NCBI RefSeq assembly: GCF_000499845.2
Contig: NC_023750.2
Coordinates: 9,693,845 to 9,757,844, forward strand
Origin: Phaseolus vulgaris
Taxonomy: Eukaryota; Streptophyta; Magnoliopsida; Fabales; Fabaceae
Direction of reading: 5' to 3'
DNA length: 64,000 bases
Shown here: positions 1,359-61,088 of the stretch, piece after piece
Layout: every line of letters starts with the position of its first letter
How positions within the stretch are numbered: position 1 is the first letter of the stretch
Program-made: the position numbers and the translations under genes
Notes under the pieces: model-generated
The model's database searches: none
What the model was told of the DNA's origin: nothing
The model's input: the letters and a program-made list of their open reading frames with translations, nothing else

Positions 1359-2821
1359 TCAGTCTTCAGAAGGAACAACCTTCCCGTCCACCACCTCGTT
1401 GTTCAGCGACACCATGGAAAGATCCAAGTCGGGGTACAGGCAGGCGAATTGTTCCCGGGCAACATCGAATCCAGCAGCGAGAATCTGGGCGGAGCTCAGC
1501 TCAAGTTCTTCAATCTGTTTCTTTAGCCCCTCGTTCTGCTGCTTCAGTTCTTCAGCCCCCTCCCGAGCTTGAAGAAGGTCTTCAATAACCTTCTTGGATT
1601 CCGCCTGCGCCTGGGCCAGCTCTGCGGCGACCTTCCCATTTTCCTCTTTGGCCTCGGCGAGTTTGGCCATGGTGTCATCTCTCTCCTTCTCGACTTTCCC
1701 CAAGAAGACCTCCCGATCAGCTGACCTTTTCTCGAGGTTTTTTACCTTGGCGGCGTCTGCTTTGATCAACGCCTCCAGGTCAGCCACTTTGACGCGATAA
1801 GGGACCAGCTTGCTCTCCAGCTCGATCTTCTCTTGAGCTAAGAGCTGCACCTTATGGCGTAGATCGGTGGCCTCCATGCGTGCCTCCCGAAGCTCAATGC
1901 TCATGGCATCCTCCACTCGGGAGTGATCGATCTCCGCGAGCATGAGATTGCAGGATAACTTCTCCGCCTCGATCCTGATTGTGCGATTTTCCTCTTGGAG
2001 CACGAAGATGTCATCCTGGAGCTTCTTGCAGGAACTCTCCACAGCTTTTGAGATGATGGAGGGGAAATCCTCTGCCATCATCTTGAGTTTCGCTGAGAAG
2101 GGTTCCCACACCCTTTTGACCTCAAGGGAGAGGTTTGTCTTTGGAAGCACCGGGGGAGCTTGCTGCTGGTTTTCGCCACCACCTTCTTGAGCTGGCTGTT
2201 GAGTGGGAGCTTCTTGGCGTGGTGGCGACGACGGGGATTCGGTGATGATGATAGGCGAGTTGCAGGCACCTTCACCCCCGCCTGGTGCAGCATCTGCAGT
2301 TGAGGCGTTTGAAGGAGGACCCCCTCCAGCTGATACATAGGGCGTGGAGGCGCTTGGGGGGTTCTCCATAAAGTTGGGCTCGGCAGCCTCAACCACAGGG
2401 AATGCAGCTGCCAAAGGAACTGCTTGGACTGGTGATGCAGGAGCTGGAGGAGGGAGCAGTGTTGGAGGCGGAGCTGGTGTGGAAAGTGGTGTTGATGTTG
2501 GAGGAGGAGGTGGAGCAGGTGGTGAAGAAGGCGCCACCCTTTTCCTCTTGGTGATAAGGCCATCTTCAGTCGCCTCATCGTCTTCTTCGTCATCCTCTTG
2601 GATCACCTGAGGAGTCTTCCTCTTTGGCTTCCTGAGGATGAGCTTCTTGCGCTGTTGGGCGGGCTGGGCCTCTGAAGGAGTTGGGCCTTTAGGGGGCGAT
2701 CTGCCCTGTGCAGCGGCGATCTCCACCACTGAATTTGGCACGGTCTGGGAACCCGACGCCAACCCATGGGCTCGGGCGAGCGCCCTCAGTTCAGCTAGTT
2801 TTCCCTTGCCCAATATACGAT
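1359..2821 (-). CDS. T1 opposite-strand gene, coding exon 2 (coiled-coil protein)
   Basis: This is the second coding exon of a predicted spliced gene running against the retrotransposon. The exon begins at 2821, after a TATGCAG acceptor, and is open to TGA at 1359-1361. It encodes, in order, a KGKLAELRALARAHG helix, a basic patch (RKPKRK), an acidic run (EDDEEDDEATED), KRKR, a long Pro/Ala/Ser-rich stretch and about 200 residues of charged heptad-like coiled coil. A tail with DLDLSMVS and EVVDGK is shared by the other copies and, in diverged form, by T5. Spliced to 3011-3953 the reading frame is 802 codons without a stop, so the T1 copy looks intact. The basic patches could be nuclear localisation signals. 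Function is unknown. Confidence 0.75.
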
Positions 2822-3010
2822 CTGCATAATGCAAAGGTACATGGGTTAGCTCAGAGAGAAAGATAAACACATAAGTCAGTATGCAACAAAAGCAGATAAG
2901 TGGTGCAGAAAATAAAACCAAAGTCTTGTGCACAACAGACAAGACGCCCAGAAACAGTTAGCAGAAGTAACGTCAAGTGTAATGACTTAGACACTGAGGT
3001 GAGCTCTAAC

Positions 3011-3953
3011 CTATGCGAACTTCGAGTTGATCTTCGAAGAACTCGAAGGAGATGAGCGCAGTGGTGAGGAAGGTGATATTGGCGTCCGCCACGCTCTTCC
3101 AGAAGAGGCACAAATCCTTGTCCAAAGCACCCATGCTGTCAGGACTTCTTGGCCTCCTGAAGCTTCCCTTGGCGTCTTTGTTTCCCTTGTTTACCCAGTA
3201 CAAGGGAAACCCGTCGAGCATCGAGGCGTCCTGGTCGTTTGGGCGCACTTGGACAAATTTGCCCTTCCAATCCTTGTAGGATTGCTGGAAGATAAAGAGG
3301 ATCGACCTCCCAGCAATCCCGTTCAGACTCACCCACAGGCGATCTCCCGGGTGTTTGGCTTCAAAAAGGAAAAGAAAAACGTCCACTGACGCTGGTAGCC
3401 CCAGATGCGCGCACATGATTTGGAACGCCCTTACGAACGCCCAGCTGTTGGGGTGAAGCTGGGCGGGGGCAATATCGAGCTCGGTTAGCAGCTCTCGCTC
3501 GAAACGAGTGAAGGGAAGTCGGAGCTTCACCTTCTTGAAAAACGTGGTGTAGAGGAAGCAGAACGACCCGCCACCGCTTGCTTTGTCGTCAGCACAGATC
3601 GGCTCCTCAGGGTGGCAAGGCAGCACGGTCACCTTGCTATCGTGCTCCTTGTGAAAGGAAAGATCCGACTGGTCCCCTTTCCTTAGTCGGAGTACCGCCG
3701 GTTCAGAGTTTATCGAAGACGTTTCTTTCAGCAGTGCCGAGCTGGCCCAAGGGTAAAGTTTTTTATAATCTGGAGTGGGGGCGGAGGCTCCTCCGGCGAC
3801 AGGTGGAGTAGCCTGAGCCAGGTTAGGGCGGGAGGTTGCAGGCCTCTCCGCCTGGGAAGAAGAAGCACCAGGTGCTCGCGGTGGGTTGTGAGCTTGAGAT
3901 GAAGGGTTTCGTGACGAGGGAGGAGGATTTGGGGTGATCTTTGAGCGAGCCAT
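3011..3953 (-). CDS. T1 opposite-strand gene, coding exon 1 (Transposase_28-like domain)
   Basis: The ATG at 3953 lies 8 bp after a TTTGCAG acceptor. The exon ends at 3011 in an ATA-G / GTTAG donor, and the 189-nt phase-1 intron (3010-2822) leads to the coiled-coil exon. The first 80 or so residues are basic and rich in Pro, Ser and Ala. They are followed by a compact domain with FERELLTEL, APAQLHPNSWAFVRAF and DVFLFLFEAKHPGDRLW. This resembles, from memory, the family named 'putative gypsy type transposon' (PF04195). That name reflects where it is found and does not show transposase activity. I recognise no catalytic residues. If the intron is retained, translation stops almost at once after the donor. 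Confidence 0.75.
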
Positions 3954-3961
3954 CGCGGAAA

Positions 3962-4395
3962 CTGCAAAGGAAAAAGAAAAGGAAAGGTGAGCAGGGTTCG
4001 CAGAGGCTGACTCGATCGTGAAAGAAGGGTGAAAAACGAACGAACGAAAGTTCGTTGTAATGGAGACAAAGCCCTAAGTTACGAGAAGGGAGAAACAGAA
4101 GAAACAGCCCACAACGTATGCACCAGACAGTTAATGGATGATGCGAATCGGTTAAAATGCAGGAAAAATCAGCAGAAGAAGTAAAGGGGGTACCTTTTTA
4201 TGATCAGAAGAACAATGAAGGAAGTTGAGGATTCAGGAGGTTGAAGAGCGTCGAGAGTTTTGCAGAAGAAGCTTGAAGTGTTTGAAAAAGCAAAGAAGTG
4301 ATGGAACGGTAGAAGTGAAATGGGTTTAAGGGTTTTTCGAATGGGTTTTGGAAGTGCAAACGACAGTTAAAGGTAACCGTTGATGAAGCCACGTG
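3962..4395 (-). promoter_or_regulatory. T1 opposite-strand promoter, 5' UTR and intron 1
   Basis: Reading on the minus strand: a CACGTG box at 4395-4390, then an AACCCTTAAACCC motif (about 4337-4323) resembling the plant telo-box, then a donor AAAAAG/GTACC at 4194/4193 and an acceptor TTTGCAG at 3962. This predicts a 232-nt intron in the 5' UTR. T2 and T4 have introns of the same length at the same place. Transcription start and splicing are inferred, not observed. Confidence 0.55.
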
Positions 4396-5618: not shown

Positions 5619-5623
5619 AAAGG

Positions 5624-6563
5624 TGTACCGATCAGGTAACCGGAAGTGATGACGTGGCGGCCAGCGATAATGTAGGCGTGTTGAACGGGACACCTGGCTG
5701 ACAGAAGGGAAGTACATCGGGAAGTCTGTGTAGTCGCCAATTGTTGGCTTGGCGTTCTCCGATCTCTAGTATGTATAACCGGCGGTCACCAGGCTTGCGT
5801 CATAGTCGCCGTATGTGAGCTCTAGGAGATCAGGTGGTTAGAGACCGCCGAAAGGGCCACATCGCCGAAAGATCAGGAAGGCTTGCCTAAGGCTTTCAAG
5901 AGGTACAAGTACGGAGGACGAGGTTATCATATGATCACTCCCTAGCCAAAGGTCGGGGCAAGGGAACAGTTTCCCAGAACATGCATGATGTACGAGTGAA
6001 GTAGATCATGATAGCGGCAGGCAAGACCACAGAGAAAGTGTGCATGGTGACACCCCGTACTCGCCACTCAAGGGGTCGCGCTCCAAGGAAGCTGTGCACC
6101 AAGTTACTCCTTGCATGAGTAACTTAGTCAAATAGCTTGAAGAGTAGAAGTGACGCTCAAGTGGAGAGGGATCCAGATGGTGACACGTGTACAGTTAGAT
6201 GTGAGCCACGTGTCCAGAGGTGTAACCGTCAGGAGAGAGAAACGCTCAGGTATATAAGGAACTCTTAACAGACTTTTGAGGTACACTTTCCAGAACACTT
6301 TAGTATGCTTCTTAGTACACTGAGATTCACGGCGCACGGTTCCTTGAGTTTAGATATTCTCTCTGAGTTTTTGGTGATTCCGTCACTGACTTGAGCGTCG
6401 GAGCGCGATCGGCCGCAGCGGCGCCACTCTGTTTCTTTGTTTTCTTCAGGTTCTTGCGAGGAATTGAGACGTGAAGATCGAAGGTTAACGTGGTGCAAAG
6501 CTGATCAAGAGAAGCATCCTTGACGTGGCAAGACTCTTGCACTCAGGTCAACCGGCAGGATCA
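5624..6563 (+). repeat. T2 5' LTR
   Basis: This 940-bp LTR starts TGTACCGATCAGG and ends CCGGCAGGATCA. Promoter features are CACGTG at 6184-6189 and 6207-6212 and TATATAA at 6251-6257. The start site should lie some 25-35 bp after the TATA box. Confidence 0.93.
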
Positions 6564-6565
6564 TC

Positions 6566-6584
6566 AGGCGCCCACCGTGGGGCC
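6566..6584 (+). other. T2 primer binding site
   Basis: Two bases after the LTR lies AGGCGCCCACCGTGGGGCC. T5 has the same site with a canonical first base (TGGCGCC...), so T2 carries a mismatch at the base pairing with the tRNA terminal A. I could not match the full 18 bases to a plant tRNA from memory. Confidence 0.7.
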
Positions 6585-7001
6585 GTGTAAAACGTGTCTC
6601 CCATCCACAACGTGAGTTCTTGAAGTTTCTGCGGTGCTTGTGTGGTTGTGTGCTGGTGCAACCATTCTCGAAGTCTTTCACCGTTTGTTTGAGTTTTTGA
6701 TCGGTAGTTCGAAGTTTTTCACCGTTTGTTTGGGTTTTCGTTCGGTGAATTGAAGTTTCTCACTGTTTGCGCGAGTTTCAATCGGTAAATCGAGGTTTTT
6801 ACCGTTTGTTCGGCGTTTTTTACCGTTCGTGTTGAGTTTGCGAGTTTCTGTGGAGGTTTTTGCATCCGAATCAATCCCGTGCTGTTGTGATTGCGTTCTT
6901 GGAAGTTCTTTGGTGGAAAGAGGTTTTAACCGATTGATTGCTGGATCGATCGTTCTGCTGGTGGAGATTCTGGTCGCTGAAGTTTGATTTGTTGAGCTTT
7001 C
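6585..7001 (+). other. T2 5' untranslated leader
   Basis: This is a G/T-rich leader without an open frame. It contains several imperfect repeats of the form GAAGTTTTTCACCGTTTGTTTG between about 6670 and 6840. Those may belong to packaging or dimerisation signals, which I cannot test. Confidence 0.5.
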
Positions 7002-10000
7002 ATGAGAAAGATGAGAAGTACGCGTTCAAGTCCCGTTGTGCCAACTGCTGAAGAAGGCGCCATGACCATGGCGCAAATGATGGAGATCATGCACGCATTG
7101 CAAGCAAATGTGGAGGCATCGCGCGTAGAGCAGGCAAAGATGCACGAAGATCTGGTCGCCTCCCAGGCCAGAAATGAGGAGCTCAGCAAGGTCACTGAGG
7201 AGTTGCGTCAAGCTCTTCACGAGCAGAGGGGACGCACGACCGTTGAAGAAGTTGCACCATCGTCGCCACCGCGCGTCTTTCCGATGCCGTTTGCTCAGTC
7301 GATCACGGACACGCCGATCCCTGCGAGCGTGGTACCTGTGAAAGCTTCTTTCACCGGCGTGGAGGATCCTGAAGCGCATCTCATTGCGTTCCACACGCAG
7401 ATGATTCTGTCGGGAGGCTCAGATGCAGTTTACTGCAAGATGTTTATGAGCACACTCCAGGGAACAGCTCTGGAATGGTTCATTAGCCTGCCCACGGGTC
7501 ACGTAACCAACTTCCAGCAGTTCTCAAAGCTTTTCGTCGACCAGTATATCGTAAACAAGGCGCCCCCTAGGGTGTCTTACGACTTGTTCGACGTAAGGCA
7601 GTATCAGGGAGAGTCCCTCAGGGACTATCTGAATCGTTTTGGAGCACAGATGGTCCGCTCGCCTGCCAAAGACGAGGAGATGTTGGTATATGCCTTCAAA
7701 AGGGGCGTACAGCCTGGGCCTTTCTGCGAGGCGCTAATTAGGAGCCACCCCGCCACGTTTGCTGAAGTTCTGCGACTTGCTGTGGCCCACATCGCCGACG
7801 AGAGTGAGGTCGCAGAAAAGAGAGGGAGCGTGGCTCCTGCTAGGCCACGGGCCCAGACTAGAATTCAGTCGCAAAGGGTGCTGGAGACGGCGGCGGCTAA
7901 AAAGGATCAAAGGACTCGCCATCCTTACGATCCAAAGAAAAACAAGGGAAGGGGCCCAGGGCGCCCCAGGGAGTTCAATCGCCCGCCAAGGTACAGGTTT
8001 GTCATGGGGTTGGCGGACCTGATCGCCATTCCCAACATAGCTGCCAGGCTTAAGCCGCCTGAGAAGGTCTCGGACAAGGTGTTAGGGCCAAAAGCAAACG
8101 CATGGTGCGAATTTCACCAGAGCTTTGGTCACACCCTTGATTCGTGTTTGGCCCTGGGTTACCAGCTCAACGACTTGGTTAAGAGTGGTTTCTTGAATGA
8201 TTACCTGCTGGACAAGAGAACGGGGCAAGCGTCGAGCTCCCAGCCGGCGAGCGGTGAGGGCCAGCAGCATGAAGTGTCCACGCACGGCGAGATCCACACC
8301 ATCGCTGGAGGTTTCTCGGGTGGTGGATGTACTGCATCACAGAGGAAGAAATATGCAAGGTCTGTGATGGCAGTGGATGTGTTCGAAGATCACTCGCCGG
8401 ATGTGGACATTACGTTCACAAAGGAGGATCTCAGGGACGTTGTGCCTCATGACAACGATCCCATTGTTATCTCGTTGGTCACGGCAGGAAGGAAGGTCCA
8501 CCGGGTACTGGTGGACCAAGGAAGCTCGGCAGATGTAATGTTCTGGCCGACTTTCACCAAGCTACAACTACCCCTTGACCAGTTAAGGCCCTATGGAGGA
8601 TGCTTATATGGGTTCGCTGGCGATCAGGTGGAGGTCAGGGGGTACATTGAGTTGAGAACTACGTTCACAGACGAGGCGGCCTCGAGGATGGAGAAGATCA
8701 AGTACCTCGTCGTGAATGCCCCCTCAGCGTATAACATTCTGTTGGGAAGGCCGACCCTCAACAGAATAGGAGCTGTGCCCTCAACCAGGCACATGAAGGT
8801 TAAGTTGCCATCAATGGAGGGGGTGGTGATCACCATAAGATCTGACCAAAAGGAGGCAAAGAAGTGCTACGAAAATAGCCTCAAGAATAAGAGGTCAGTG
8901 AGCTACATCACCACGACGCCGCCTCCCTGTGTGGAGCCCAGGCCAACAGAGGGGCGAGTTGTTGATGCGGCGATGGAAGTGACCGCCGGAGGCGATGTCG
9001 TCATGGTAGACGCTGAGGTTGAGGGGAAGAACGCCGGTCGGGAAGAAGAAGCGAGAAACCGCCCAGAGGAAGCTAGGGAATCGGGAATCGCCAGGGCGGT
9101 GATTGCCAGGGAAACCAGGTCCAAACCCGTCGAGGAGTGGCTTGAGAGGGAGATTGGGGGCAAGGTCTTCAAGTTGGGAAGATCTTTGGAAGGAGAGCTA
9201 CAAGACCAGATCGCCAAGGTGATAGAAAGGCATATGGATGCTTTTGCATGGTCTGCTTCAGACATGCCGGGAATCGACCCCGATTTCTTGTGTCACCACC
9301 TAGCAATGGACACACAGGTCAGACCAGTACGACAGAGGAGAAGAAAGTTCAATGAGGAAAGGAGACAGGCGATTAGGGATGAAACGCAAAAGCTCCTCGC
9401 CGCAGGCCATATCAGGGAGGTCCAGTACCCTGAGTGGTTAGCTAATGTCGTGCTGGTAAAGAAGAGCAACGGGAAGTGGCGCATGTGCGTCGACTTCATG
9501 GACCTAAACAAGTCTTGTCCAAAGGATTCATACCCTTTGCCAAGCATAGACGCCCTGGTCGACAGTGCAGCAGGGTGCAAGTTGTTGAGCTTTCTGGACG
9601 CCTTCTCAGGGTACAATCAGATAAAGATGCATCCTATGGATGAAGAGAAGACCGCCTTCATGACTGAGAGATCATGCTACTGCTACAAGGTGATACCCTT
9701 CGGGCTGAAGAATGCGAGGGCCACGTATCAAAGGTTGATGGATAAGGTACTTGCACCGATGCTGGGAAGGAATGTGCAAGCGTACGTAGATGATATGGTC
9801 GTGACTTCGCTAGAGAAAAGCAAGCACATCTCGGATCTGGAGGAGTTGTTCACCACAATCGCTAAGTACAAGTTGAAGCTGAATCCCGAGAAGTGCATTT
9901 TTGGCGTGGAGGCGGGAAAATTACTGGGTTTCCTCTTGACTGAGAGAGGGATCGAGGTGAATCCTGATAAGTGTGTCTGGACGAAGGAATGTGAAGAAGC

Positions 10001-12293
10001 TTTCTCAAAGCTTAAGGAGTACCTGGCGAGCCCGCCGGTTCTGTGCAAACCTTTGGTGGGAATGCCTCTCAAGTTGTATTTTGCTGTAACTGAGAGGGCG
10101 GTGAGTGCGGTGCTCGCCCAAGATCAAGATCACATCCAGAAGCCTATTTATTTCGTCAGCAAGGTGTTACAAGGCCCGGAGGTAAGGTATCAGGCCTTGG
10201 AAAGAGCTGCACTGGCAGTTGTATTCTCGGCGAGGAGGCTGCGCCACTATTTTCAAAGCTTTACGGTGCTAGTGATGACCGACTTGCCCATCCAGAAGGT
10301 CTTAAAGAAGCCTGATGTAGCTGGAAGAATGGTGAAATGGGCAGTGGAGCTGTCAGAGTTCGACATCAAATACGAACCCCGAGGACCGATAAAGGGGCAA
10401 ATTTTCGCGGATTTCGTGGTCGAGCTCTCATCAGAGGCAGTTCAGGTTGAGGGGGATGACTTTCGTTGGGTCCTTTCAGTAGATGGATCGTCCAACCAGT
10501 AGGGTAGCGGTGCTGGAGTCATTTTAGAAGGGCCCAACGGCGTGCTGATAGAACAGTCTCTAAGGTTTGCCTTCAAAGCCAGCAACAATCAAGCAGAATA
10601 TGAGGCGTGGATTGCAGGTATCTTGCTGGCCAAGGAGATGGGAGCTAAAGTGTTGATGGCCAAGAGTGACTCATTGTTGGTCACAGGGCAAGTAACAGGC
10701 GAGTTCCAGGCCAAGGACCTGCAAATGGCGGCTTACTTGGAGTATGTGCAGGAGTTGAAGGGTTCCTTTGCCTCGTTTGAGTTGGTGCATGTACCCAGAG
10801 AGCAAAATCCCCGAGCTGACTTGCTAGCCAAGCTCGCCAGTTCGGGCAAGGGGGGTAGGCAGAGGACAGTTATCCAAGAAACTCTAAAGACGCCTAGGGC
10901 GTTTGTGGCAGACCACCAGGTTCTTCAGATAAGTAAGTCGACGGAGAAAGCGGCGAGGAGTCACAGATCCTTGACCCAGGAGACCTTGAGATCGCCGAGG
11001 ATAAGAGCATGTCAAGGGGAAAGGGTGAACGTAGCACAGGTCTGCGCTACGCATAAGCCAGACACATGGATAACGCAATACCAGCGCTGCCTGGCAGATG
11101 GCGTTCTCCCGCTGGATCCGACGGAGGCTAGGAAGATAAAGAAGAACTCTAGCAAATTCACCTTGATCGACGGCGAGCTGTTCAGGTTTGGGTTTACACA
11201 CCCACTCCTAGATTGTGTGCACGGGGAAAAATGTAGAAGGATTATAGCCGAGCTCCATGAAGGCATATGCGGGAGTCACATTGGGGGTCGAGCTCTGGCT
11301 GCAAAAGCCCTCCGTGCAGGTTATTACTGGCCAACGATGAGGGAAGACTGCAAGAAGTATGCTCAATGTTGCAAGCAATGTCAGCAGCACGCCGACTGGC
11401 ACACGGCGCCTCCAGAAGAGCTGAAGTCAATTTACAGCCCTTGGCCGTTTCATACTTGGGGAATTGACATTCTGGGACCTTTCCCATTGGCGGTCAGGCA
11501 GATGAAATACTTGGTAGTGGCGATTGAATACTTCACCAAGTGGATCGAAGCGGAGCCAGTAGCCCAGATCACCGCGCATAAGATCGAAAGCTTTGTATGG
11601 AAGAACATCGTCTGCCGGTTTGGTGTGCCTAAACGCCTGGTGTCGGATAATGGAACTCAGTTTGCAAGTCACCTATTGAAGAAGCTGTGAGAAGAGGTGG
11701 GAATCCAACAGGTGTTTGCATCCGTCGAGCACCCGCAGACGAATGGCCAAGTGGAGTCTGCCAATCGGGTGTTCCTGAGAGGTTTAAAGAGAAGGTTAGA
11801 GAAAGCTAAGGGATTGTGGGCTGAAGAGGTACCCCGCATAGTTTGGGCGTACCATACTACTGAGCAGTCAGGAACCCACGAAACCCCGTTTAGCTTGGTT
11901 TATGGATGTGATGCGATGATTCCAGTTGAAATCCAGGAAAGCTCGCCGAGATTCCAGAACTTTGTGGCGGAAGACTCGAACGAAGAAAGAAGATTGAATC
12001 TGGATTTACTGGATGAGGTCAGGGAAGAGGCAAGAGTAAAGGCCGAGGCAGTGAAGAGGAGGATTGAGCGAAGGTATAACTCTAAGGTGATGCCAAGGCA
12101 GTTCAGAGGGGGCGACCTGGTGATGAGGAAGGCCCATCAATACGAGATGGAGAACAAGTTATCGCCTAAGTGGACGGGACCGTTCAGAGTAACCGAGGTG
12201 CTCGGGAACGGCGCCTACCGCTTAGAGACGCTAGAAGAAGGGGCGATTCCTCGCACTTGGAACGCCACACATCTCAAATTGTATTACAGTTAA
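7002..12293 (+). pseudogene. gag-pol: T2 gag-pol polyprotein, interrupted
   Basis: One frame from ATG 7002 (MRKMRSTRSS) to TAA 12291-12293. Domains in order: N-terminal coiled coil; gag core (GVEDPEAHLIAFHTQM); CHHC zinc knuckle near 8107; protease with VDQGSSADV near 8512; RT with AYVDDMV near 9780; degenerate RNase H; archaeal-type RNase H (VDGSS); integrase with HHCC finger, DDE core and a C-terminal GPF motif. Lesions: TAG at 10500-10502 inside the second RNase H, TGA at 11688-11690 in the integrase core, and an in-frame loss of 49 codons near 9974 that removes the segment linking RT to RNase H. A Gly-to-Arg change also hits the RT motif KNAGATYQ. The frame is otherwise open, so decay is recent. 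Confidence 0.93.
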
Positions 12294-12353
12294 AGCTTTG
12301 TAAGTAAAAACGAACATGAAGAGATTTACATGCTTTCTGTTAAAACAGTTTGA

Positions 12354-12406
12354 AGGGGGCACTCTTTTTTCCCTAAGGAGGGTTTTTAATGAGGCCACCC
12401 AATAAA
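12354..12406 (+). promoter_or_regulatory. Conserved post-pol hairpin block (T2)
   Basis: Same layout as in T1: G-run, CACTC, T-run, CCCTAAGGAGGG, T-run, AATGAGGCC, CCCAATAAAG, preceded by the CTGTTAAAACAG palindrome. It begins about 60 bp after the pol stop. Confidence 0.6.
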
Positions 12407-12523
12407 GAAGAGTTTTCAAAGTTTAAAGTTTCTAAGATTGCATGCTTGTGGTTTTGAAAGTTTTCAGAAGAAAGACCTTATCACTCGAACGTGATCTAAG
12501 GCAACGATATGCTGCATGCTTTC

Positions 12524-12770
12524 TAGTTAAAAGTTTTAAAGTCCCCATCATTTTTCGGCGATCGGTGGCATCAGTTAAAAGTTTTAAAGTCCCCATCGTT
12601 TTCCGACGATCGGTGGCGTCAGTTAAAAGTTTTAAAGTCCCCATCGTTTTTCAGCGATCGGTGGCTTCAGTTAAAAGTTTTAAAGTCTCCATCGTTTTTC
12701 GGCGATCGGTGGCATCAGTTAAAAGTTTTAAAGTCCCCATCGCTTTTCGGCGATCGGCGACAGTAGTTAA
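12524..12770 (+). repeat. T2 48-bp minisatellite, five copies
   Basis: GTCCCC or GTCTCC recurs at 12541, 12589, 12637, 12685 and 12733, a period of exactly 48 bp. Each unit contains CGGCGATCGGTGGC or a close variant. The period is a multiple of three, which keeps spurious frames open. Confidence 0.9.
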
Positions 12771-12853
12771 AGTTTGAAAGTCCTCGTCGTCTTTCGACGA
12801 TCGGAGGCACCAGAGATGACTAAAGACCTCAACGCTCTCGTGCGTCTTGAGGC

Positions 12854-13150
12854 AAGAAGAAGTCCTCCTTGCCTTTGAGCAAGTGCAGGCAAGAAGAAGT
12901 CCTCCTTGCCTTCGAGTAAGTGCAGGCAAGAAGAAGTCCTCCTTGCCTTTGAGCAAGTGCAGGCAAGAAGAAGTCCTCCTTACCTTCGAGTAAGTGCAGG
13001 CAAGAAGAAGTCCTCCTTGCCTTTGAGCAAGTGCAGGCAAGAAGAAGTCCTCCTTGCCTTTGAGCAAGTGCAGGCAAGAAGAAGTCCTCCTTGCCTGTGA
13101 GCAAGTGCAGGCAAGAAGAAGTCCTCCTCGCCTCTGAGCGAGTGTAGGCA
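12854..13150 (+). repeat. T2 37-bp minisatellite, about eight copies
   Basis: Unit AAGAAGAAGTCCTCCTTGCC followed by TTTGAGCAAGTGCAGGC repeats with a 37-bp period and few substitutions. CTTGC...GCAAG in each unit can form a small hairpin. A 180-codon minus-strand frame across it is an artefact of repetition. Confidence 0.9.
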
Positions 13151-13977
13151 AGAACAGATTGAAAGACCTCTCTGCGCAAGCAGATAGAGGCAAGATTGAA
13201 AGTCCTCAGCGTGTCCAGGAAGGACGAGATGTACACCACGGGCAAGCTGAGGCACCATAAAAAGTCCTTCTCACCTCAGAGTGAGTTCAGGCAAGATGAA
13301 CTGAAAAGTCAGGGGTGTTCGTGACCTTAAACGGTGGGAAGGGAAGGAAAACGCCTTTTCCCCTTTAAGTGAAACATCAATATTGACCCAGTGAGACCAG
13401 ATCATTGTTCTGAAACTCAGGGAGGTAGAGAAGGATCCGAAAGGCGCCTCTACCCCCAGATGAGGGAACAATGGTCAAGTTATGAAGGTAAGAAAGGTCA
13501 CATCGCCAGAACCCTACGACGATCAGAAGAATCCCAGGCGATGACAGGAGTAAGGGCTCACTTTGCTGGGCAGATCCGGTAAACTGTATTTTAATACCAG
13601 TTTCGAGTTAAAACCTGCTGCCTAGTAAGTAATTTTATGCTAAGGTTTGTTGCATTAAGTTCACAAGTTATATTAAGTGTCATCGCTTGAAAGTTAATGG
13701 TTGCTCAAGTTTACTTTGAGTTAACAGTTTGATAAGTTGTTATGAGATTAACAGTTTATCCAAGTTCGAAGCATTGTGAGTAAGGTAAGGCTCGAATATT
13801 GCCGAGTTAATTCGTTTGAGTAAAGGTAAAGGCATGCAAAGCAAGTAGAAAGACGATATATGGGAAGTGAAAATGATAGAAGTGGCAATTCAAGTTCACA
13901 TGCATACATAAACAATTACATAAGCAGTATAACTGCAGATAAAGTGTTTAGAAAGAAAAGGTGATAGGGGAAGGCAG
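13151..13977. other. T2 spacer before opposite-strand gene
   Basis: Non-coding. It shares blocks with 43600-44402 in T4, for example AGTCAGGGGTGTTCGTGACC and the CCTTTTCCCCTTTAAGTG segment. It would contain the 3' end of the opposite-strand transcript. Confidence 0.5.
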
Positions 13978-15382
13978 CTAATCTTCAGAGGGTACAATCT
14001 TCCTGTCCACCACCTCGTTGCAGATCGACACCATGGAAAGATCGAGCTCGGGATATTGACATGCTACTTGCTCCAGAGCGGCGTCAAACCCGGCGGTGAG
14101 GACATGGGCAGTGCTCTGCTCGAGCTCTTGTGCTTGCTTCTTCAGTTCTTCCATTTCCTCACAAGCTCGAGCAAGCTCTTCAACAGCTTTTTTGCCTTCG
14201 TCTCGGGCATGGGCCAGCTCTGCGGCAGTCTTTTTGGCCTCCTCGCGAGCTTCGGTGAGCTCAGCGAGAGCGTCATCCCTTTCCTTCTCGACCTTTCCAA
14301 GAAGAATCTCCCGATCAGCCGATCTCTTCTCGAGGTTTTCCACTTTGGTCGCATCCGCCTTTTTTGCAGCCTCCAAGTCTGCCACCTTGAGCCTATATGG
14401 GACCAGCTTGCTCTCCAAGTCGATCTTCTCTTGGAGTTGGAGGTGCAGTTTCTGGCGCAGATCGGAGGCTTCCTTGCACATGCTTCTTAACTCAGCATCC
14501 ATGGCGTCCTCCAGCCTTGAGTGCTCAATCTCCGCCATCATTAGGTTGCAAGAGAGCTTTTCCGCCTCAACCCTTATCATGCGGTTTGACTCCTTCAGCG
14601 CAGAGTTCTCATCTTGGAGCTTCTTGAGTGAGTCCTTCACAGCCCTTGATACAATCGAGGGAAGATCCTCCGCCATCATCTTCAGTCGGGCTGTGAAGGG
14701 TCCCAAGATCTCTTCGAAGGAGGTTGGGAGGCTTGAGGTTGTTGCTGGAGGTGATGGGGGGGTTTGGTGCTGACTTTCACCACCACCCTCTTCAGTTTGT
14801 AGGGCAAGTGGGGCTTCTTGGCGTGGTGGTGAGGTCGGAGATTCTATTATGAGTATCGGCGAGATTTGAGCGCCCTCATCTCCTCCTAGTGCGGCCCCAG
14901 CAATAGAAGTGGTGGAAGGAGGACCCTCTCCAACAGACACGAACGGTGTGGAGGCGCTTGGAGGGTTCTCTATGAAGTTTGTGTCGCTGCTTTCGACCAC
15001 TGGGGGCGCGGCGGCCAAGGGTGTTGCTTGGACTGTTGCTAGAAGAGCTGGAGGAGAGGGCGGTTTGGTGTTGGAAGCGCAGGTGGTGTAGAGGTGGCCA
15101 CCCTCTTCCTCTTAGTGATGAGGCCATCCTCAGTTTCTTCATCGTCCTCTTCTTCCTCTTGGACCACTTGAGGAGTCTTCCTCTTGGGTTTCCTCAGAAC
15201 TAGTTTCTTCCTTTGTGGGGCGGGTGGTGCCACCGAAGGAGTTGGACCTCGGGGAGGAGTCTTGCCTTGGGCAGTGGCGATCGCCACCACCGGGTTGGGC
15301 ACAGCTTGGGAGCCCGCCGCGAGCTTGTGGGATCGGGAGATCGCCCTCAATTCCGCTAGTTTCCCTTTGCCCATCATGTTAT
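13978..15382 (-). pseudogene. T2 opposite-strand gene, coding exon 2, frameshifted
   Basis: The exon starts at 15382 after a TGTGCAG acceptor and stops at 13978. It encodes the KGKLAELRAISRSHK helix, basic and acidic patches, the Pro-rich linker, the coiled coil and the conserved tail. Against T4, one base is missing near 15065 in the Pro-rich part, splitting the frame into 15382-15039 and 15018-13978. Together with the second 1-nt loss in the preceding exon this explains why the spliced length is 2383 rather than 2385 nt. Confidence 0.75.
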
Positions 15383-15547
15383 CTGCACAAGGTAAGGGAT
15401 AGGTAAGCAACCAAAACAGAAGCAAAAGATACAAGTATATTCATGCAGAGGTAACACAAGCAGCACATAGATAAATGATGGAATGCCAAAATAGAATGGT
15501 AAAAATACTAAGTTAGTGTTAAACTTGGTGTGGAGGTGGGGGCTAAC

Positions 15548-16525
15548 CTATGTGTATTTCGAGTTGGCTCTCGAAGAACTCGTAGGGAATGATTGAGGCA
15601 GTGGGGAAGGTGATGTTGGCAGCAGCCACGCTCTTCCAAAAGAGACAAAGATCTTTGTCTAACGCCCCCATGTTGTCAGGACTTCTTGGTCTCCTAAAGC
15701 TGTCCTTGGAGTCCTTGCTCCCCTTGTTTACCCAATTCAAGGGGAAGCCGTCAAGCAGTGAGGGGTCTTGATCATTCTGGCACACCTTCACGAACTTCCC
15801 TTTCCAGTCTTTGTAAGATTGCTGGAAGATTGAGAAGATTGATCTCCCAGCGATCCCATTCAAGCTGACCCAGAGGCGATCTCCGGGATTCTTTACCTCA
15901 AACAAAAAGAGGAAGACGTCGACTGAAGCTGGCAGCAACAAGTGCGCGCAGAGAATTTGGAACGCCCTGACGAACGCCCAGCTGTTGGGGTGAAGCTGGG
16001 CGGGGGCGATGTTGAGCTCGGTTAGTAGCTCTCTCTCGAAACGGGTAAAAGGAAGCCTAAGCTTCACTTTCTTGAAGAATGTAGCGTAGATGAAGCAGAA
16101 CAACTCGCCGTTGTTCCCTTTATCATCCGCGCAGATCGGTTCTCCCGGGAGGCAGGGCAGCCGGTCATTTTGCTATCATGCTCCTTATGGAAGGAAAGGT
16201 CAGGTTGATCTCCTCTCCTCAATCGGTGAACGCCCAACTCAGTGTTTATCGAGGAGGTCTCTTTTAGCAGAGTTGGGGTGGCCCAAGGATAGAGCTCCTT
16301 ATAGTCTTGCGGAGGAAGAGGGGCTCCTCCGGCGAATGGTGGAGTTGCCTGGCTAGGGTTGGCGTGAGAAGAGGTAGGCCTCTCAGCCTGGGCAGAGGGA
16401 GCACCAGAGGCTCGTGATGGGTCACGTGTCGATGGAGGATTTGCCCCAGGGGCAACCCTACGAGTTTTGGGTGGAGGGTTTCGTGATGAAGAAGCAGGAT
16501 TAGCGGTGGACTTTGTGTGAGCCAT
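15548..16525 (-). pseudogene. T2 opposite-strand gene, coding exon 1, frameshifted
   Basis: ATG at 16525 (MAHTKSTANP), donor ATA-G/GTTAG at 15548/15547, intron 165 nt. A single base is missing near 16160 relative to T4. This separates the Pro-rich N-terminal part from the Transposase_28-like domain (FERELLTELNIAPAQLHPN). Exon limits and intron phase match the other copies exactly. Confidence 0.75.
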
Positions 16526-16533
16526 CGCAGGAA

Positions 16534-16966
16534 CTGCAAAGGAAAGAGAAAGGGATGAAATGAAGATAGCAGAGAATGACTCGTTTGGGGACGAAGAAGA
16601 TAGAACGAATGACTAAGGGTTCGTTGGGACAGACGTTATTATGGAACGAAACCTTAGGTTACGAGAAAAAGAAAAACAGCCCACAACGTATGCTTCAGAT
16701 AGATAATGGATGATGCAAACCGATTAAAATGCAACAAATACCAATAGGAGGAGTAAAAGGGGTACCTTTTTGTGATCGGAGAAGCGATGAAGAAAGTTGA
16801 AGATTGAGAGGGACGAGAAGCTTCATGGTTCGCAGAGAAAACGTTCTGAATGTTTGAGAATGAAGAAAGATGATGGAACAGTGAAAAGCGCGAAGGGTTT
16901 AAGGGTTTTCGAACGTTTTAGGAAGCGCAAACGGCAATTAAAAACGACCGTTGATGAAGCCACGTG
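16534..16966 (-). promoter_or_regulatory. T2 opposite-strand promoter, 5' UTR and intron 1
   Basis: CACGTG at 16966-16961, AACCCTTAAACCC near 16900, donor AAAAAG/GTACC at 16766/16765, acceptor TTTGCAG at 16534. The predicted intron is 232 nt, as in T1 and T4. Confidence 0.55.
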
Positions 16967-17115
16967 TCGTATGATTGAAAAAGGGGTTGGTGGAGCGTCA
17001 GAAAGGCAGAGGGTACGAACGTACGGAAATCCGTACCAGCGCCACGTAGATCGACGATGACGTGACCTCCTACTCTTTTCGCTAGACAAGTCTCAGCTTA
17101 AGACTGGGGGGCTTG

Positions 17116-18055
17116 TGTACCGATCAGGTAACCGGAAGTGATGACGTGGCGGCCAGCGATAATGTAGGCGTGTTGAACGGGACACCTGGCTGACAGAAGG
17201 GAAGTACATCGGGAAGTCTGTGTAGTCCCCAATTGTTGGCTTGGCGTTCTCCGATCTCTAGTATGTATAACCGGCGGTCACCAGGCTTGCGTCATAGTCG
17301 CCGTATGTGAGCTCTAGGAGATCAGGTGGTTAGAGACCGCCGAAAGGGCCACATCGCCGAAAGATCAGGAAGGCTTGCCTAAGGCTTTCAAGAGGTACAA
17401 GTACGGAGGACGAGGTTATCAGATGATCACTCCCTAGACAGAGGTCGGGGCAAGGGAACAGTTTCCCAGAACATGCATGATGTACGAGTGAAGTAGATCA
17501 TGATAGCGGCAGGCGAGACCACAGAGAAGGTGTGCATGGTGACACCCCGTACTCGCCACTCAAGGGGTCGCGCTCTAAGGAAGCTGTGCACCAAGTTACT
17601 CCTTGCATGAGTAACTTAGTCAAATAGCTTGAAGAGTAGAAGTGACGCTTAAGTGGAGAGGGATCCAGATGGTGACACGTGTACAGTTAGATGTGAGCCA
17701 CGTGTCCAGAGGTGTAACCGTCAGGAGAGAGAAACGCTCAGGTATATAAGGAACTCTTAACAGACTTTTGAGGTACGCTTTCCAGAACACTTCAGTACGC
17801 TTCTTAGTACACTGAGATTCACGGCGCACGGTTCCTTGAGTTTAGATATTCTCTCTGAGTTTTTGGTGATTCCGTCACTGACTTGAGCGTCGGAGCGCGA
17901 TCGGCCGCAGCGGCGCCACTCTGTTTCTTTGTTTTCTTCAGGTTCTTGCGAGGAATCGAGACGTGAAGATCGAAGGTTAACGTGGTGCGAAGCTGATCAA
18001 GAGAAGCATCCTTGACGTGGCAAGACTCTTGCACTCAGGTCAACCGGCAGGATCA
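17116..18055 (+). repeat. T2 3' LTR
   Basis: 940 bp, same length as the 5' LTR, preceded by ACTGGGGGGCTTG. It carries CACGTG at 17676-17681 and 17699-17704 and TATATAA at 17743-17749. It is followed directly by the AAAGG duplication. Confidence 0.93.
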
Positions 18056-25859: not shown

Positions 25860-26616
25860 TGATCCTGCCTGTTGACCGGAGCGCTGGAGAATGCCTCGTC
25901 AAAGGATCGACGTGCGCGCCGCTTCTCACTTCCGTTCCTCCTCTGGATCTATCTCAAGAACCTGCAAAGAAACGATACGGCGCCGCTGCGGCCGATCGCA
26001 CTCCGACGCTCAAGTCAGTGACGGTATCACCAAATACTAAGAACTGGAACCGTGCAAACTCTCTCTCTCACAAACAGCTCTGTCACTCGCAAGCGTAAAG
26101 TGTATGAACTGAACGTGTGTACCTCAGAAAGTTCGTTAAGAGCTCTTATATACCTGGTGATTTTCTCTCTCCTGGCAGTTACAGACTTGGACACGTGGCT
26201 CGTATCCAACTGTACACGTGCCATCATCTGGAGGCTCCCTGACTTGGCGCTGCTTCTACTCTCATTTTGGCTAAGTTACCTATGCATGGTACTGCCCAGT
26301 GCATAGCTAACTTAGGAGTGCGATCCCTACTGAAACTGGCGAGTTAGGGTCTTCATACACCTTCCCTGTGGTCTCGCCGGCCGCCTTCATAATCTGCTTC
26401 TCCTTCATCTTCGGCGATGTGCTTGTTCTGGCGACTTCATCCTCAACCTGGCGATCACCTATTCTGGTAAGCTGGAGATCGGAACACGCCAACTTAACAA
26501 TCGGCGACTACACGTGCCTCCCGACTTCCTTCCTAACTGCCAACCTGGCGCCTTGTCAACACGCCTACACTGTAGCAGGGTGCCACGTCATCGCACCCGA
26601 CCACCAGGGCGGTACA
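25860..26616 (-). repeat. T3 3' LTR
   Basis: 757 bp, shorter than in T1, T2 and T4. On the minus strand it has CACGTG at 26220-26215 and 26197-26192 (again 23 bp apart) and TATATAA at 26152-26146. The PPT lies at about 26617-26632. Confidence 0.93.
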
Positions 26617-26767
26617 CAAGCCCTCCAGTCTTAAGCGAAGACTTGTCTAGCGAAAAGACTGAAAAAGCCTTCGTTAACACCGGTCTACGTGGCATGGACG
26701 CAGAATTCCAAGCGATAGTACTTTCTGCTGCTCTGACGCTCCACCAAACCCTTCGCGCATCGTTCGA

Positions 26768-27207
26768 CACGTGGCTCTCATCAACGGCTATCTTCATCTG
26801 CCGTTAGCGCTTCCCAAAACCATTTCGAAAACCCTTAAACCCCTTACGCTCCTACTGTTCCATCACTTTCTTCACACTTGCATACACTCTCATTTCCTTC
26901 TGCGAAAGCTCTCGACGTTCCTCGACGCTCTAGATCACCACCTCCCTTCAACATTCTCCTGATCATCGAAAGGTAACTACTTTCCTTCATCTGCTGGGTT
27001 CCCTTGCATTTTCACCGATTTGCATCATCCTGTAACTGTCTGGTGCATACGCTGTGGGCTGTTTTTCCATTTCTCCTTCTGCGTAACTTAGGGCTTTGTC
27101 GATCGTCGCAACGAACTCACATTCGTTCGTCTTTCACCTTCCTTCTATGATCGAGTCAGCCTTTGTAACCCTCCTGATTATTTTTTTTCTTTCTTCTTCG
27201 TTTGCAG
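26768..27207 (+). promoter_or_regulatory. T3 opposite-strand promoter, 5' UTR and intron 1
   Basis: CACGTG at 26768-26773, AACCCTTAAACCCC at about 26830-26843, donor CGAAAG/GTAAC at 26972/26973, acceptor TTTGCAG at 27207. The predicted intron is 235 nt and ends 8 bp before the ATG. Confidence 0.55.
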
Positions 27208-27215
27208 TTGCTATC

Positions 27216-28158
27216 ATGACTCGCACGAAGATCACCCCGAACCCCCCTCCATCAGCGCGAAACCCTCCTCCACAAGCACACGACTCAACGCAAGTTCGTG
27301 GTGCTCCCTCTTCGCAGGCTGTGAGGCCTGCGTCTTCCCAAACCGCTCTGGCCCAGGCGACTCCACCAAACGCTGGAGGAGCCCCCATCCCTCTGCCAGA
27401 CTTCAAGACTTTATACCCATGGGCTAACCCAACCCTCTTAAAGGAAACCTCGTCGGTGAACACTGCGGGAGCGGTTCTGCGATTGACCAATGGGGACGAG
27501 GCCCACCAATCGTTTCACAAGGAGCACGATGAGAGAATGATGGTGCTGCCTTGCCCCGCCGCTCTGCCAGTGTGCGCCGATGACAAAGTGAGCGCCGACG
27601 GGCCCTTCTGCTTCGTCTACACCACTTTCTTCAAGAAGGTCAAACTCAGGTTCCCTCTTACTCGATTTGAGAGGGAACTCTTAACCGAGCTCAACATCGC
27701 TGCCGCCCAGCTTCACCCCAACAGCTGGGCGTTTGTCCGAGCTTTCGAGATAACGTGCGCCCACCTGGGGTTGCCCGCGTCAGTGGACGTGTTTTTATTC
27801 CTGTTTGAGGCCAAGCACCCAGGAGATCGCCTGTGGGTCAGCCTGAATGCCATTGCTGGGAGATCCATTTTCACCATCTTCCAGTAGTCGTACAAGGATT
27901 GGAAGGGGAAGTTCATCCAGGTTCGCGCAAATGACAAAGACCCTTCCCTTCTCGACGGTTTCCCCTTGTATTGGGTGGACAAGGGGAAAAAGGAGTCCAA
28001 GAGCTGCTTCAGGAGGCCCAGAAGTCCTGATAGCATGGGAGCTTTGGACCGAGACCTTTGCCTATTCTGGAAGAGGGTGGCAGATGCCCACATAACATTC
28101 TTGACCCCCACCCTGATTTCCTTCGAGTTCTTTGAGGACCAGTTGGAATTCCAAATAG
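27216..28158 (+). pseudogene. T3 opposite-strand gene, coding exon 1, one nonsense codon
   Basis: ATG at 27216 (MTRTKITPNP). Basic Pro-rich N-terminus, then the Transposase_28-like domain with FERELLTELNIAAAQLHPN and ASVDVFLFLFEAKHPG. TAG at 27885-27887 replaces a CAG seen in T4. The frame is open again through YKDWKGKF to the donor ATA-G/GTCAAG at 28158/28159. The 943-nt exon is the same length as in T1. Intron 2 is 179 nt. Confidence 0.75.
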
Positions 28159-28337
28159 GTCAAGACGCTACACTCTTGTCTTGACATTGCTTCTGATATT
28201 GTTTCTGGGCGTCTTGTGCGACACACACAAGACTTTGGTTTTATCTTTTCTGCATATGCCTGTTTTTGCTGTCTCATTGCCTTGTACAATAATCTTTTTC
28301 CCCTTTGAGCTAACTCATGCACTTTCGTTTCATGCAG

Positions 28338-29851
28338 ATACCATGTTGGGTAAGAACATGCTCGCCGACTTGAAGGCGCTCGCCCGCAACCACGGGTTGG
28401 CGACCGGTTCCCAGACGGTGCCCAACTCGGCGGTCGAGAAGGCCATCATTCATGGGCGATCACCGCCTAAGGAGCCCACTCAACGAAAGAAACTGGTCCT
28501 TAAAAGGCCAAAGCGAAAAGCCCCCCAAGTCGTCCAAGAGGAGGAGGAAGAGGACGACGAGGTCACTGAGGATGGCCTCGTTACAAAGAGGAAAAGGGTG
28601 GCACCACCTTCTCCACCTGCCCCACCCCCTCTTCCAGCTTCAACACCACCATCAACACCTGCTCCTCCTCCCTCATCGCCAACACCACGAGCCCCTTCAC
28701 CACCAGTCCAAGCAACTCCACTGGCCACTGCGCCACCAGCAGTCGAGGCTCAAGAGCCAAACTTTCTGGAGGACCCCCCAAGCGCCTCTACGCCCCATAT
28801 CTCAGCTGGAGGGGGCCCTCCTTCAAATGCTTCAGCTGCAGAGAATGTTCCGACCGGGAATGAGGTTGCTCACACCTCCCCAATTCTAATTACCGAGTCC
28901 CCGGTCGCGTCGCCACGCCAGGAAGCAAACATTGAAAACCCTGCTAAGGAAGGTGGCGGCGAGAACCCTCCACAAGCCCCCCTGGCGCCTCTCCAGGCAT
29001 CCAACCTTTCCCTTGAAGTCACAAGGATGTGGGAACCTCTGACTGCCAAACTCAAAAACATAGCAGAGGATATCCCATCAATCATAACGAGGGCTGTGGA
29101 GAGCTCCACCAGGAGGCTTCAAGAAGATCTCTACCACCTCAAGACTGAAAACAGCACAATGAAGGTTGAGGTGGAGAAGGTGGCCTTCAGCCTAACGCTT
29201 GCGGAATTGGAACACTCCCGAGTAGAGGATGCCCTGAGTACCGAGCTTAGGCTTGCGCGCAAGGAAGCTGCTGACCTTCGCCGCAAAGTCCATGAACTTG
29301 CCCAAGAAAAAGTTGAACTTGAAAGCAAAATCGTGCCTCTGCGCACCAAGGCGAGCGACCTGGAGGCTCACATTCAAGCTAATGCCGATAAGGTACAAAA
29401 ACTGGAGCAAAGGTCAATCGACCGCGAGAAGCTACTTGGGCAAGTTGAAAAAGCGAGGGACGACGCCATGGCTGATCTCGCAGAGGCAAACAAGGAAAAA
29501 GGGAAGATGGCTGCCGAGTTGGCCCAAGCTCAAACAGAATCCAAGAAGGTTACTGACGACCTTCTTCATGCTCAAGAGACCAACAAACAACTCCAAAAAC
29601 AGGTTGAAGAGCAGGGGCAGCAGAACAAGGAGCTCAAGGAACAGGTTGAAGGACTTCAAGGGCAGTTTGAAGAACTTAAGCTAAACTCTGCTCAGATTCT
29701 GACTGCTGGATTCGAAGCCGCTCGGGAGCAATTCGCATGCCTATTCCCTGATCTCGACCTCAGCATGGTGTCGTTAAACAACGAAGTAGTAGATGGAAAG
29801 GTCATTCCCGCCGAAGGCTCAACCAATTCCACCCCATCTGCTTCTTTATAA
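28338..29851 (+). CDS. T3 opposite-strand gene, coding exon 2 (coiled-coil protein)
   Basis: The exon starts after CATGCAG at 28337 and is open to TAA at 29849-29851. It has the LADLKALARNHG helix, basic KRPKRK, acidic EEEEEDDEVTED, KRKR, a Pro-rich linker and a coiled coil longer than in the other copies (extra EEQGQQNKELKEQVEGLQGQ). The DLDLSMVSL tail is followed by about 11 added residues. Spliced total is 819 codons including the stop, with the single TAG in the first exon. Confidence 0.75.
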
Positions 29852-30420
29852 ATTCACTTGTATTTACCTTGTAAAAACTCTTGCATATGTGTTTTGAACA
29901 GTTACTTATTTCAATAGCGAAACTTGGATATTCTTTCTTCTGACTTCTTTTGAGCGCTTTCACCTTCTTTGTATGTTTAACTTTGCCGAGTTTAAATTAG
30001 CGATTTTGCAAACACGACCTTTGGCGTAACTGCTTCGAGCCGATTCAAACTTTAAGCAACGATCGCTTTAAACAACTTGTACCCTTGAGGCACTAACCTG
30101 ATCATAAGAAAAGTTTCCAAGCAACGAACTGTAACTCAATCATCGGTTCAAACAACGTCCCACTCGACCTGCTTTATCAAACAAGTCTTTCAACATTCTC
30201 GCCGTCGTTTGAACTTTTCCCGATCGCCAAAACCTCTTGGTAACACCAGCTTTTCCCAGCCTCATGCTTTGGAAGTCATTTCTTTATCTGGGGCAGAAAT
30301 GCCCTTTGGGATCTTCCTTTACCCCCCTGAACTTCAGAGCTGAAGACCGGCTGGCTAGGCGTTCTCTTCGAACCTACCTTAGCCACCTTTCAAGCTTCTT
30401 CCGCCCTCTTCGCCATACCT
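29852..30420. other. T3 spacer after opposite-strand gene
   Basis: Non-coding; presumed 3' UTR of the opposite-strand transcript and flanking element sequence. It aligns in part (reverse orientation) with T1 770-1340, for example CCGGCTGGCTAGGCGTTCTC. Confidence 0.5.
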
Positions 30421-31110: not shown

Positions 31111-31237
31111 TTTTAGAAAGCACGCGATATATATATTTTCTTGCCTCAAATCATGTACAAATGACAAGGTCTTTCTTCAAACTTTCGAAAATAGCACACA
31201 TGCAATCTGGAAACACCTTATACTTCGAAAACTCTTC

Positions 31238-31290
31238 TTTTATTGGGTGGCCTCATTAAAAACCCTCCTTAGGGAAAAAAGAGTGCCCCC
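31238..31290 (-). promoter_or_regulatory. Conserved post-pol hairpin block (T3)
   Basis: Reverse complement of the block seen in T1 and T2: GCCCCC, TTTTTTCCCTAAGGAGGG, TTTTTAATGAGGCC, AATAAA. The CTGTTTTAACAG palindrome follows on the plus strand. Confidence 0.6.
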
Positions 31291-31354
31291 TTGAAACTGT
31301 TTTAACAGAGACATTGTAATATAACATTTGTGTTTGTCTTTACTTACAAAGCTC

Positions 31355-52143: not shown

Positions 52144-52153
52144 CTATCTCTCG

Positions 52154-61086: not shown

Positions 61087-61088
61087 AA

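What the first reader, a model, noticed from the sequence alone, without database searches (positions are those of the whole stretch)
1359..4395. A spliced gene on the opposite strand of Tat elements, with the same exon structure in five copies
In T1 (1359-3953), T2 (13978-16525), T3 (27216-29851), T4 (44403-46984) and T5 (52154-54444) two antisense frames are separated by 116-198 nt with a donor at ATA-G/GT and an acceptor at GCAG/A. Joining them is phase 1 and in frame in all five. T1 gives 802, T3 819 and T5 725 codons; T2 and T4 give 795 after counting two and one missing bases. Protein cores and the C-terminal tail are kept between the T1-T4 and T5 subfamilies although their LTRs are not. 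Antisense ORFs are known in Tat elements; a single two-domain spliced product is my inference.
Basis: partly seen in the sequence, partly recalled or inferred. Interest (0 to 1): 0.9.

Follow-up and report, generated by a model that had tools for sequence, protein, structure and literature searches.

The report
Spliced antisense gene in bean retrotransposons
Jumping elements that are abundant in the common bean genome carry, on the strand opposite to their usual genes, what looks like a real split gene with two introns, coding for a conserved domain of unknown function joined to a long coiled coil; if confirmed in RNA, these elements make a spliced message that is read backwards from their far end.

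Summary
Five Tat/Retand-like elements of Phaseolus vulgaris carry an antisense gene between pol and the 3' LTR. Two coding exons (a PF04195 'Transposase_28' domain; then a linker, a ~220-residue coiled coil and a C-terminal hairpin) flank a 116-198 nt GT-AG intron in phase 1. T1 (801 aa) and T5 (724 aa) are open. T2 and T4 have frame breaks. In 54 further T1-type copies, third codon positions differ from T1 about 3-4 times as often as first and second ones in both exons, with no such pattern in the intron. Donor GT is kept in 57 of 57 rows, acceptor AG in 55 of 57. dN/dS among T1-T4 is 0.10-0.21. Of 20 copies with both exons open, 19 have an intron length not divisible by 3, so plain read-through cannot join the frames. 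Addition: all five also have a 5'-leader intron (232-266 nt) ending 8-10 nt before the ATG. No RNA data were available, and no public bean model in my lists carries both full exons. Such antisense ORFs are known; the papers I could look into do not describe the two as exons of one spliced gene.

The parts
3962..4193 (-). T1 leader intron (232 nt), donor AAAG|GTACC, acceptor CCTTTGCAG 8 nt before the ATG
   Evidence: acceptor AG kept in 47 of 51 T1-type copies, donor GT in the 4 copies that reach it
3011..3953 (-). T1 coding exon 1 (943 nt), PF04195 Transposase_28
   Evidence: 34.8 bits, cut-off 26.2
2822..3010 (-). T1 main intron (189 nt, GT-AG, T 0.41, CTAAC 25 nt from the acceptor)
1359..2821 (-). 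T1 coding exon 2 (linker with basic clusters, coiled coil, C-terminal hairpin)
16534..16765 (-). T2 leader intron (232 nt)
15548..16525 (-). T2 coding exon 1, frame broken once
15383..15547 (-). T2 main intron (165 nt)
13978..15382 (-). T2 coding exon 2, frame broken once
26973..27207 (+). T3 leader intron (235 nt)
27216..28158 (+). T3 coding exon 1, with an in-frame TAG (open frame ends at 27887)
28159..28337 (+). T3 main intron (179 nt)
28338..29851 (+). T3 coding exon 2, open
46993..47224 (-). T4 leader intron (232 nt)
46007..46984 (-). T4 coding exon 1, frame broken once
45809..46006 (-). T4 main intron (198 nt)
44403..45808 (-). T4 coding exon 2, open
51878..52143 (+). T5 leader intron (266 nt), donor AAAG|GTATG, acceptor CATTGCAG 10 nt before the ATG
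   Evidence: donor and acceptor identical in 18 of 20 relatives, 2 not alignable there
52154..52991 (+). T5 coding exon 1, PF04195
   Evidence: 29.5 bits, cut-off 26.2
52992..53107 (+). T5 main intron (116 nt, CTAAT 25 nt from the acceptor)
53108..54444 (+). T5 coding exon 2
5623..18055 (+). Host element of T2: LTRs 5623-6563 and 17115-18055 (98.6%), gag-pol frames 6996-12293
25860..37924 (-). Host element of T3: LTRs 25860-26616 and 37168-37924 (99.5%)
50836..62157 (-). Host element of T5: LTRs 50836-51550 and 61443-62157 (99.7%), gag-pol 55596-61193 open

Best explanation
The five regions are copies of one gene with a leader exon and two coding exons on the antisense strand of Tat/Retand-like LTR retrotransposons. 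Transcription starts near the 3' LTR and runs back towards pol (inferred). A leader intron is removed 8-10 nt upstream of the ATG, and the main intron is removed in phase 1 (both inferred from DNA). The product would be one protein of about 720-800 aa: an N-terminal globular PF04195 domain, a disordered linker with acidic and basic (nuclear-localisation-like) clusters, a ~220-residue coiled coil for self-association, and a conserved C-terminal hairpin. The element keeps the introns because it replicates through the sense RNA, in which the antisense splice signals are not read. Most likely job (inferred, weakest step): a nuclear accessory protein that acts on the element's own DNA, RNA or preintegration complex.
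For: Mismatches to T1 per site at codon positions 1/2/3.075/.058/.215 (exon 1).046/.047/.164 (exon 2); intron phases .076/.100/.115 (54 of 60 fetched copies, 6 dropped for coverage). The pattern switches off and on at the boundaries and is stronger on internal branches. T5 type without L088: exon 1 .010/.004/.027, exon 2 .014/.011/.041, intron .036. dN/dS for the six pairs of T1-T4: 0.096-0.176 (exon 1), 0.164-0.207 (exon 2); +1-frame control on two pairs 1.2-1.5. Donor GT 57 of 57, acceptor AG 55 of 57 ungapped rows of 58; T5 type without L088, GT 20 of 20, AG 19 of 20. 19 of 20 copies with both exons open have an intron length not divisible by 3, and 19 of those 20 keep ATG, GT and AG. CTAAC/CTAAT exactly 25 nt from the acceptor in T1, T3 and T5. 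In 25 of 29 chosen TRP28 ORFs the exon-1 end could be placed; the next residue is G (19), S (5) or C (1), i.e. codons of the form N-GT. 12 bean gene models make this exact join. Leader intron in all five. Seven two-domain proteins share invariant residues in both halves. 0 intron-less T1-type junctions against 2,658 donor sites fits replication through the sense strand.
Against: No RNA evidence. None of the 45 bean models listed shows PF04195; by simple letter rules 12 start at MGxLDK late in exon 1, 11 at the exon-2 Met, 6 at the exon-1 Met, 16 otherwise. P0001, P0003, P0022, P0037, P0102 and P0110 keep the start of exon 1 but lack most or all of the TRP28 stretch. An ATG at the third codon of exon 2 is kept in 55 of 57 T1-type rows, although T1 itself has ATA. 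P0036, P0039 and P0042 are read as one frame straight through the intron. No TATA-like motif in the leaders of the five. The T1-type intron changes more slowly than third codon positions and other intron dinucleotides are as conserved as the splice sites. One of the 20 open copies, L081, has lost the acceptor AG. Sense-side open frames of up to 237 aa lie opposite T2 exon 2 and T5 exon 1.
Confidence: 0.85

Rival explanations
1. Two separate antisense genes: TRP28 and coiled coil are translated independently, each from its own ATG, and the gap is an ordinary spacer.
For: Exon-2 ATG conserved; at least 11 of 45 bean models start at that Met; the passages read list antisense ORFs without joining them.
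Against: Does not explain the conserved GT and AG, the kept joint phase across T1-T4 and T5 types, the end of constraint at GT, the branch-like motif at a fixed 25 nt, or T1's loss of the ATG.
Confidence: 0.08
2. One frame read through the gap (stop read-through, frameshift or an open intron), giving a protein with a hydrophobic linker.
For: P0036, P0039 and P0042 are open through the gap; T1's, T2's and T4's introns (189, 165, 198 nt) are multiples of 3.
Against: 19 of 20 copies with both exons open have a gap not divisible by 3; T1, T2 and T4 stop one codon after the donor; no coding periodicity in the gap. The length filter of the protein search favours open-through ORFs.
Confidence: 0.03
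3. Regulated splicing: the same leader is joined either to the exon-1 acceptor (fusion protein) or directly to the exon-2 acceptor (coil-only protein), and intron retention gives a TRP28-only protein. This extends the main reading and its probability overlaps with it.
For: Both acceptors end in GCAG and lie 5-10 nt before an ATG (in T1 the second is ATA); only 17 of 1,885 ATGs in the window, these included, have a pyrimidine-rich GCAG within 12 nt; bean models exist that start at the exon-2 Met or join an earlier place in exon 1 to the exon-2 start.
Against: Gene models are predictions; no isoform was seen in RNA.
Confidence: 0.3

Closest known systems
Antisense TRP28 (PF04195) ORFs of Retand elements (Vicient 2025, PMC11963269; abstract and found passages seen)
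   Same: Place between pol and 3' LTR, antisense strand, PF04195; 11 Smc domains in antisense ORFs are also counted there
   Different: 'intron' does not occur in the main text; the passages seen do not join the ORFs
ORF2 of 15 common bean Ty3-gypsy families (Gao et al. 2014, PMC4093653; found passages seen)
   Same: [quoted passage not shown] probably the same gene family (my inference, not compared by sequence)
   Different: One ORF2 size per element is tabled; 'intron' does not occur
Grande gene23 of maize (Gomez-Orte 2013; paper not held, known here through passages of PMC7264820 and PMC11963269)
   Same: Antisense accessory gene with its own promoter, nuclear protein
   Different: Intron structure not known to me; not compared by sequence here
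[quoted passage not shown]
   Same: Intron inside a plant LTR retrotransposon that joins two ORFs when spliced
   Different: Sense strand, polyprotein
HBZ of HTLV-1 (search listing and starts of abstracts; nuclear location from a passage of PMC11963269)
   Same: Antisense gene of a retroelement expressed from the 3' end, nuclear; spliced (title in the listing)
   Different: No sequence relation tested; analogy of layout only

Membership tests
Tat/Retand Ty3-gypsy lineage | gag-pol in sense, long pol-3'LTR region with tandem repeats and antisense ORF | tested here: met
   (LTR pairs, gag-pol frames, offset self-matches at 12525-13154)
Tat/Retand Ty3-gypsy lineage | Placement by RT phylogeny | not tested
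   no RT tree built
TRP28 antisense ORF | PF04195 above the gathering score | tested here: met
   34.8 (T1) and 29.5 (T5) against 26.2; T2-T4 not scanned
Spliceosomal (GT-AG) intron | Conserved GT and AG, T-rich, no coding constraint inside | tested here: met
Spliceosomal (GT-AG) intron | Removed from RNA in vivo | not testable with these tools
   no reads held; 12 public gene models agree, their RNA support unknown
Protein-coding gene under selection | dN/dS well below 1 in both exons, in frame only | tested here: met
   T1-T5 exon 1 0.289; gag-RT 0.056 and RH-INT 0.045 for comparison
SMC proteins | SMC family match above cut-off | tested here: not met
   exon 2 of T1 and T5 hit only models below their cut-offs, none of them named SMC; Pfam only
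HBZ-like antisense regulator (works like) | Represses or regulates sense transcription | not testable with these tools
   layout analogy only

The most novel reading that the evidence does not exclude
A plant retrotransposon carries on its antisense strand an alternatively spliced regulatory gene: one leader with a 5' intron feeds two acceptors, each placed just before its own ATG, so that fusion, TRP28-only and coil-only proteins come from one class of message. That would be a retrovirus-style accessory gene read from the 3' end, with a domain whose predicted fold found no match in the structure searches run here.
Probability: 0.3. Interest if true: 0.78.

Novelty: new variant of a known kind. 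Interest (0 to 1): 0.63.

Why it matters
The role of antisense ORFs in this plant retrotransposon lineage is open, and a 2020 review asks for a look at antisense and spliced transcripts (passage). If the two ORFs are exons of one spliced gene, ORF surveys have been reading half-proteins, the TRP28 and 'SMC' ORFs are one protein, and splice junctions give a strand-specific, read-level assay for antisense expression against thousands of copies. An antisense intron also implies that the antisense message is not the replication template.

Full report
What was checked. It holds five Tat/Retand-like elements or parts of them. T2, T3 and T5 lie in elements with both LTRs (98.6, 99.5 and 99.7% alike); T1's element runs off the window's start, and only the 3' part of T4's element was seen. 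In each, antisense frames lie between pol and the 3' LTR.

Gene model. T1: exon 1 3953-3011, intron 3010-2822, exon 2 2821-1359, 801 aa. T5: 52154-52991, 52992-53107, 53108-54444, 724 aa. T2 has a frame break in each exon and T4 one in exon 1. Exon 1 of T1 and T5 carries PF04195; exon 2 matches no Pfam family above cut-off.

Selection, T1 type. From 60 own-genome copies fetched by an exon-2 match that does not touch the junction, 54 cover at least 90% of T1; L031, L038, L040, L048, L059 and L066 were dropped. These copies come from the best-scoring of some 9,700 candidates, so they are not a random sample. Mismatches to T1 per codon position are .075/.058/.215 in exon 1 and .046/.047/.164 in exon 2, and .076/.100/.115 for the three phases of the intron. 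In blocks next to the boundaries the pattern stops at the donor and resumes at the acceptor. On a tree of 58 rows (the 54 plus T1-T4), changes per site at positions 1/2/3 on internal branches are .50/.33/1.68 (exon 1) and .44/.35/1.65 (exon 2), with 1.09 for the intron; on tips 1.20/1.01/2.39.94/.81/2.36 and 1.70. The weaker bias on tips is expected if copies decay after insertion. dN/dS for all six pairs of T1-T4 is 0.096-0.176 (exon 1) and 0.164-0.207 (exon 2); five of the six have dS of 0.9 or more and are near saturation, while T2-T4 (dS 0.44 and 0.35) gives 0.116 and 0.164. A +1-frame control on two pairs gives 1.2-1.5. T1 against T5, exon 1, gives 0.289. For comparison gag-RT gives 0.056 and RH-INT 0.045 between the T2 and T3 elements; against the T5 element synonymous sites were saturated and no ratio came out. 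Indels of up to 60 nt in T1-type exons are mostly not multiples of 3 (175 of 232), so most old copies are dead: 4 of 58 have no frameshift or in-frame stop in either exon.

Selection, T5 type. 16 of 21 rows (T5 and 20 copies) have both exons open. Leaving out L088, whose exon 1 is unrelated, mismatches to T5 are .010/.004/.027 (exon 1).014/.011/.041 (exon 2) and .036 (intron). With L088 the exon-1 bias looked weaker (.023/.016/.038).

Main intron. The donor GT is kept in 57 of 57 ungapped T1-type rows and the acceptor AG in 55 of 57. In T5 type, leaving out L088, GT is kept in 20 of 20 and AG in 19 of 20. In the T1-type intron the GT ranks seventh and the AG twenty-third of 188 dinucleotides by conservation, so the splice sites are among the most conserved, but others are equally so. 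T content is .41 in the three main introns measured and .41-.44 in the leader introns, against .18-.24 in the exons of T1 and T5. CTAAC (T1, T3) or CTAAT (T5) lies 25 nt from the acceptor, which fits the plant branch-site consensus as I recall it. Of 20 copies with both exons open, 19 have intron lengths that are not multiples of 3, T1 being the exception; 19 of the 20 keep ATG, GT and AG, L081 having lost the AG.

Deep comparison. I chose 29 TRP28 ORFs (4 from the window, 25 from the protein searches); in 25 the exon-1 end could be placed, and P0054, P0062, P0067 and P0069 were set aside. The next residue is G in 19, S in 5 and C in 1, which are codons of the form N-GT; beyond it only close relatives still look alike, judged by eye. 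Only protein letters were at hand for the database ORFs, so the GT itself is inferred there. Seven two-domain proteins (T1, T5, one each from Phaseolus coccineus, Arachis and Mucuna, two from unnamed contigs) share invariant residues in both halves. Bean gene models: 12 make the exact predicted join (P0002, P0004, P0008, P0014, P0020, P0031, P0073, P0075, P0087, P0089, P0096, P0103), P0018 lacks 6 residues there, and P0001, P0022, P0037, P0102 and P0110 join an earlier place in exon 1 to the exon-2 start. None of the 45 bean models shows PF04195, so none carries both full exons; both lists come from capped candidate sets. Whether these models rest on RNA is unknown to me.

Leader intron. All five copies have AAAG|GTA and, 232-266 nt later, a T-rich tract ending in GCAG 8-10 nt before the ATG. 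In T5 type both sites are identical in 18 of 20 relatives, 2 not alignable there; in T1 type the acceptor AG is kept in 47 of 51, and the donor GT in the 4 copies that reach it. 17 of 1,885 ATGs in the window, the genes' own included, have a pyrimidine-rich GCAG within 12 nt upstream. No TATA-like motif was found in the leaders.

Mechanism. Shown from DNA: a conserved coding gene with two conserved introns on the antisense strand, in at least two subfamilies whose LTRs do not align. Inferred: transcription from near the 3' LTR, splicing, nuclear action. The absence of intron-less junctions of T1 type (0 matches at up to 2 mismatches; donor-side count 2,658 with a shorter pattern) fits a message that is not itself copied back into the genome. 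The exon-2 ATG just behind an acceptor, kept in 55 of 57 T1-type rows, suggests that alternative joins may give a coil-only product; T1 has lost that ATG.

Relation to what is known. Antisense TRP28 ORFs, and SMC-like antisense ORFs in bean, are published (abstracts and passages seen). 'intron' does not occur in the main text of PMC11963269 or PMC4093653, and PMC7264820 asks for a look at antisense and spliced transcripts. My literature searches were made, in open-licence papers only; the original Grande, RIRE2, Retand and Steinbauerova papers were not read, so priority cannot be settled here.

Noticed in passing
G000:C4:31120142-31144621: Ten exon-2 matches, nearly all spaced 2122 bp: a satellite-like tandem array that seems to have grown from the antisense gene.
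   Followed up: no
exon-2 starts near 2821, 15382, 28338, 45808 and 53108: Exon 2 begins with an ATG a few bases behind the acceptor in T2-T5 and in most relatives; T1 itself has ATA.
   Followed up: partly
4878-5623: LTR-like sequence of T1's element (4878-5435 matches T3's LTR) is followed almost directly by the 5' LTR (5623) of T2's element.
   Followed up: no
50347-50679: Copy (98.8%) of 61085-61414, the stretch just inside the 5' LTR of T5's element, lies just outside its 3' LTR: perhaps a second internal region sharing that LTR.
   Followed up: no
12525-13154: Tandem repeats between pol and the antisense gene, as described for Retand elements.
   Followed up: no
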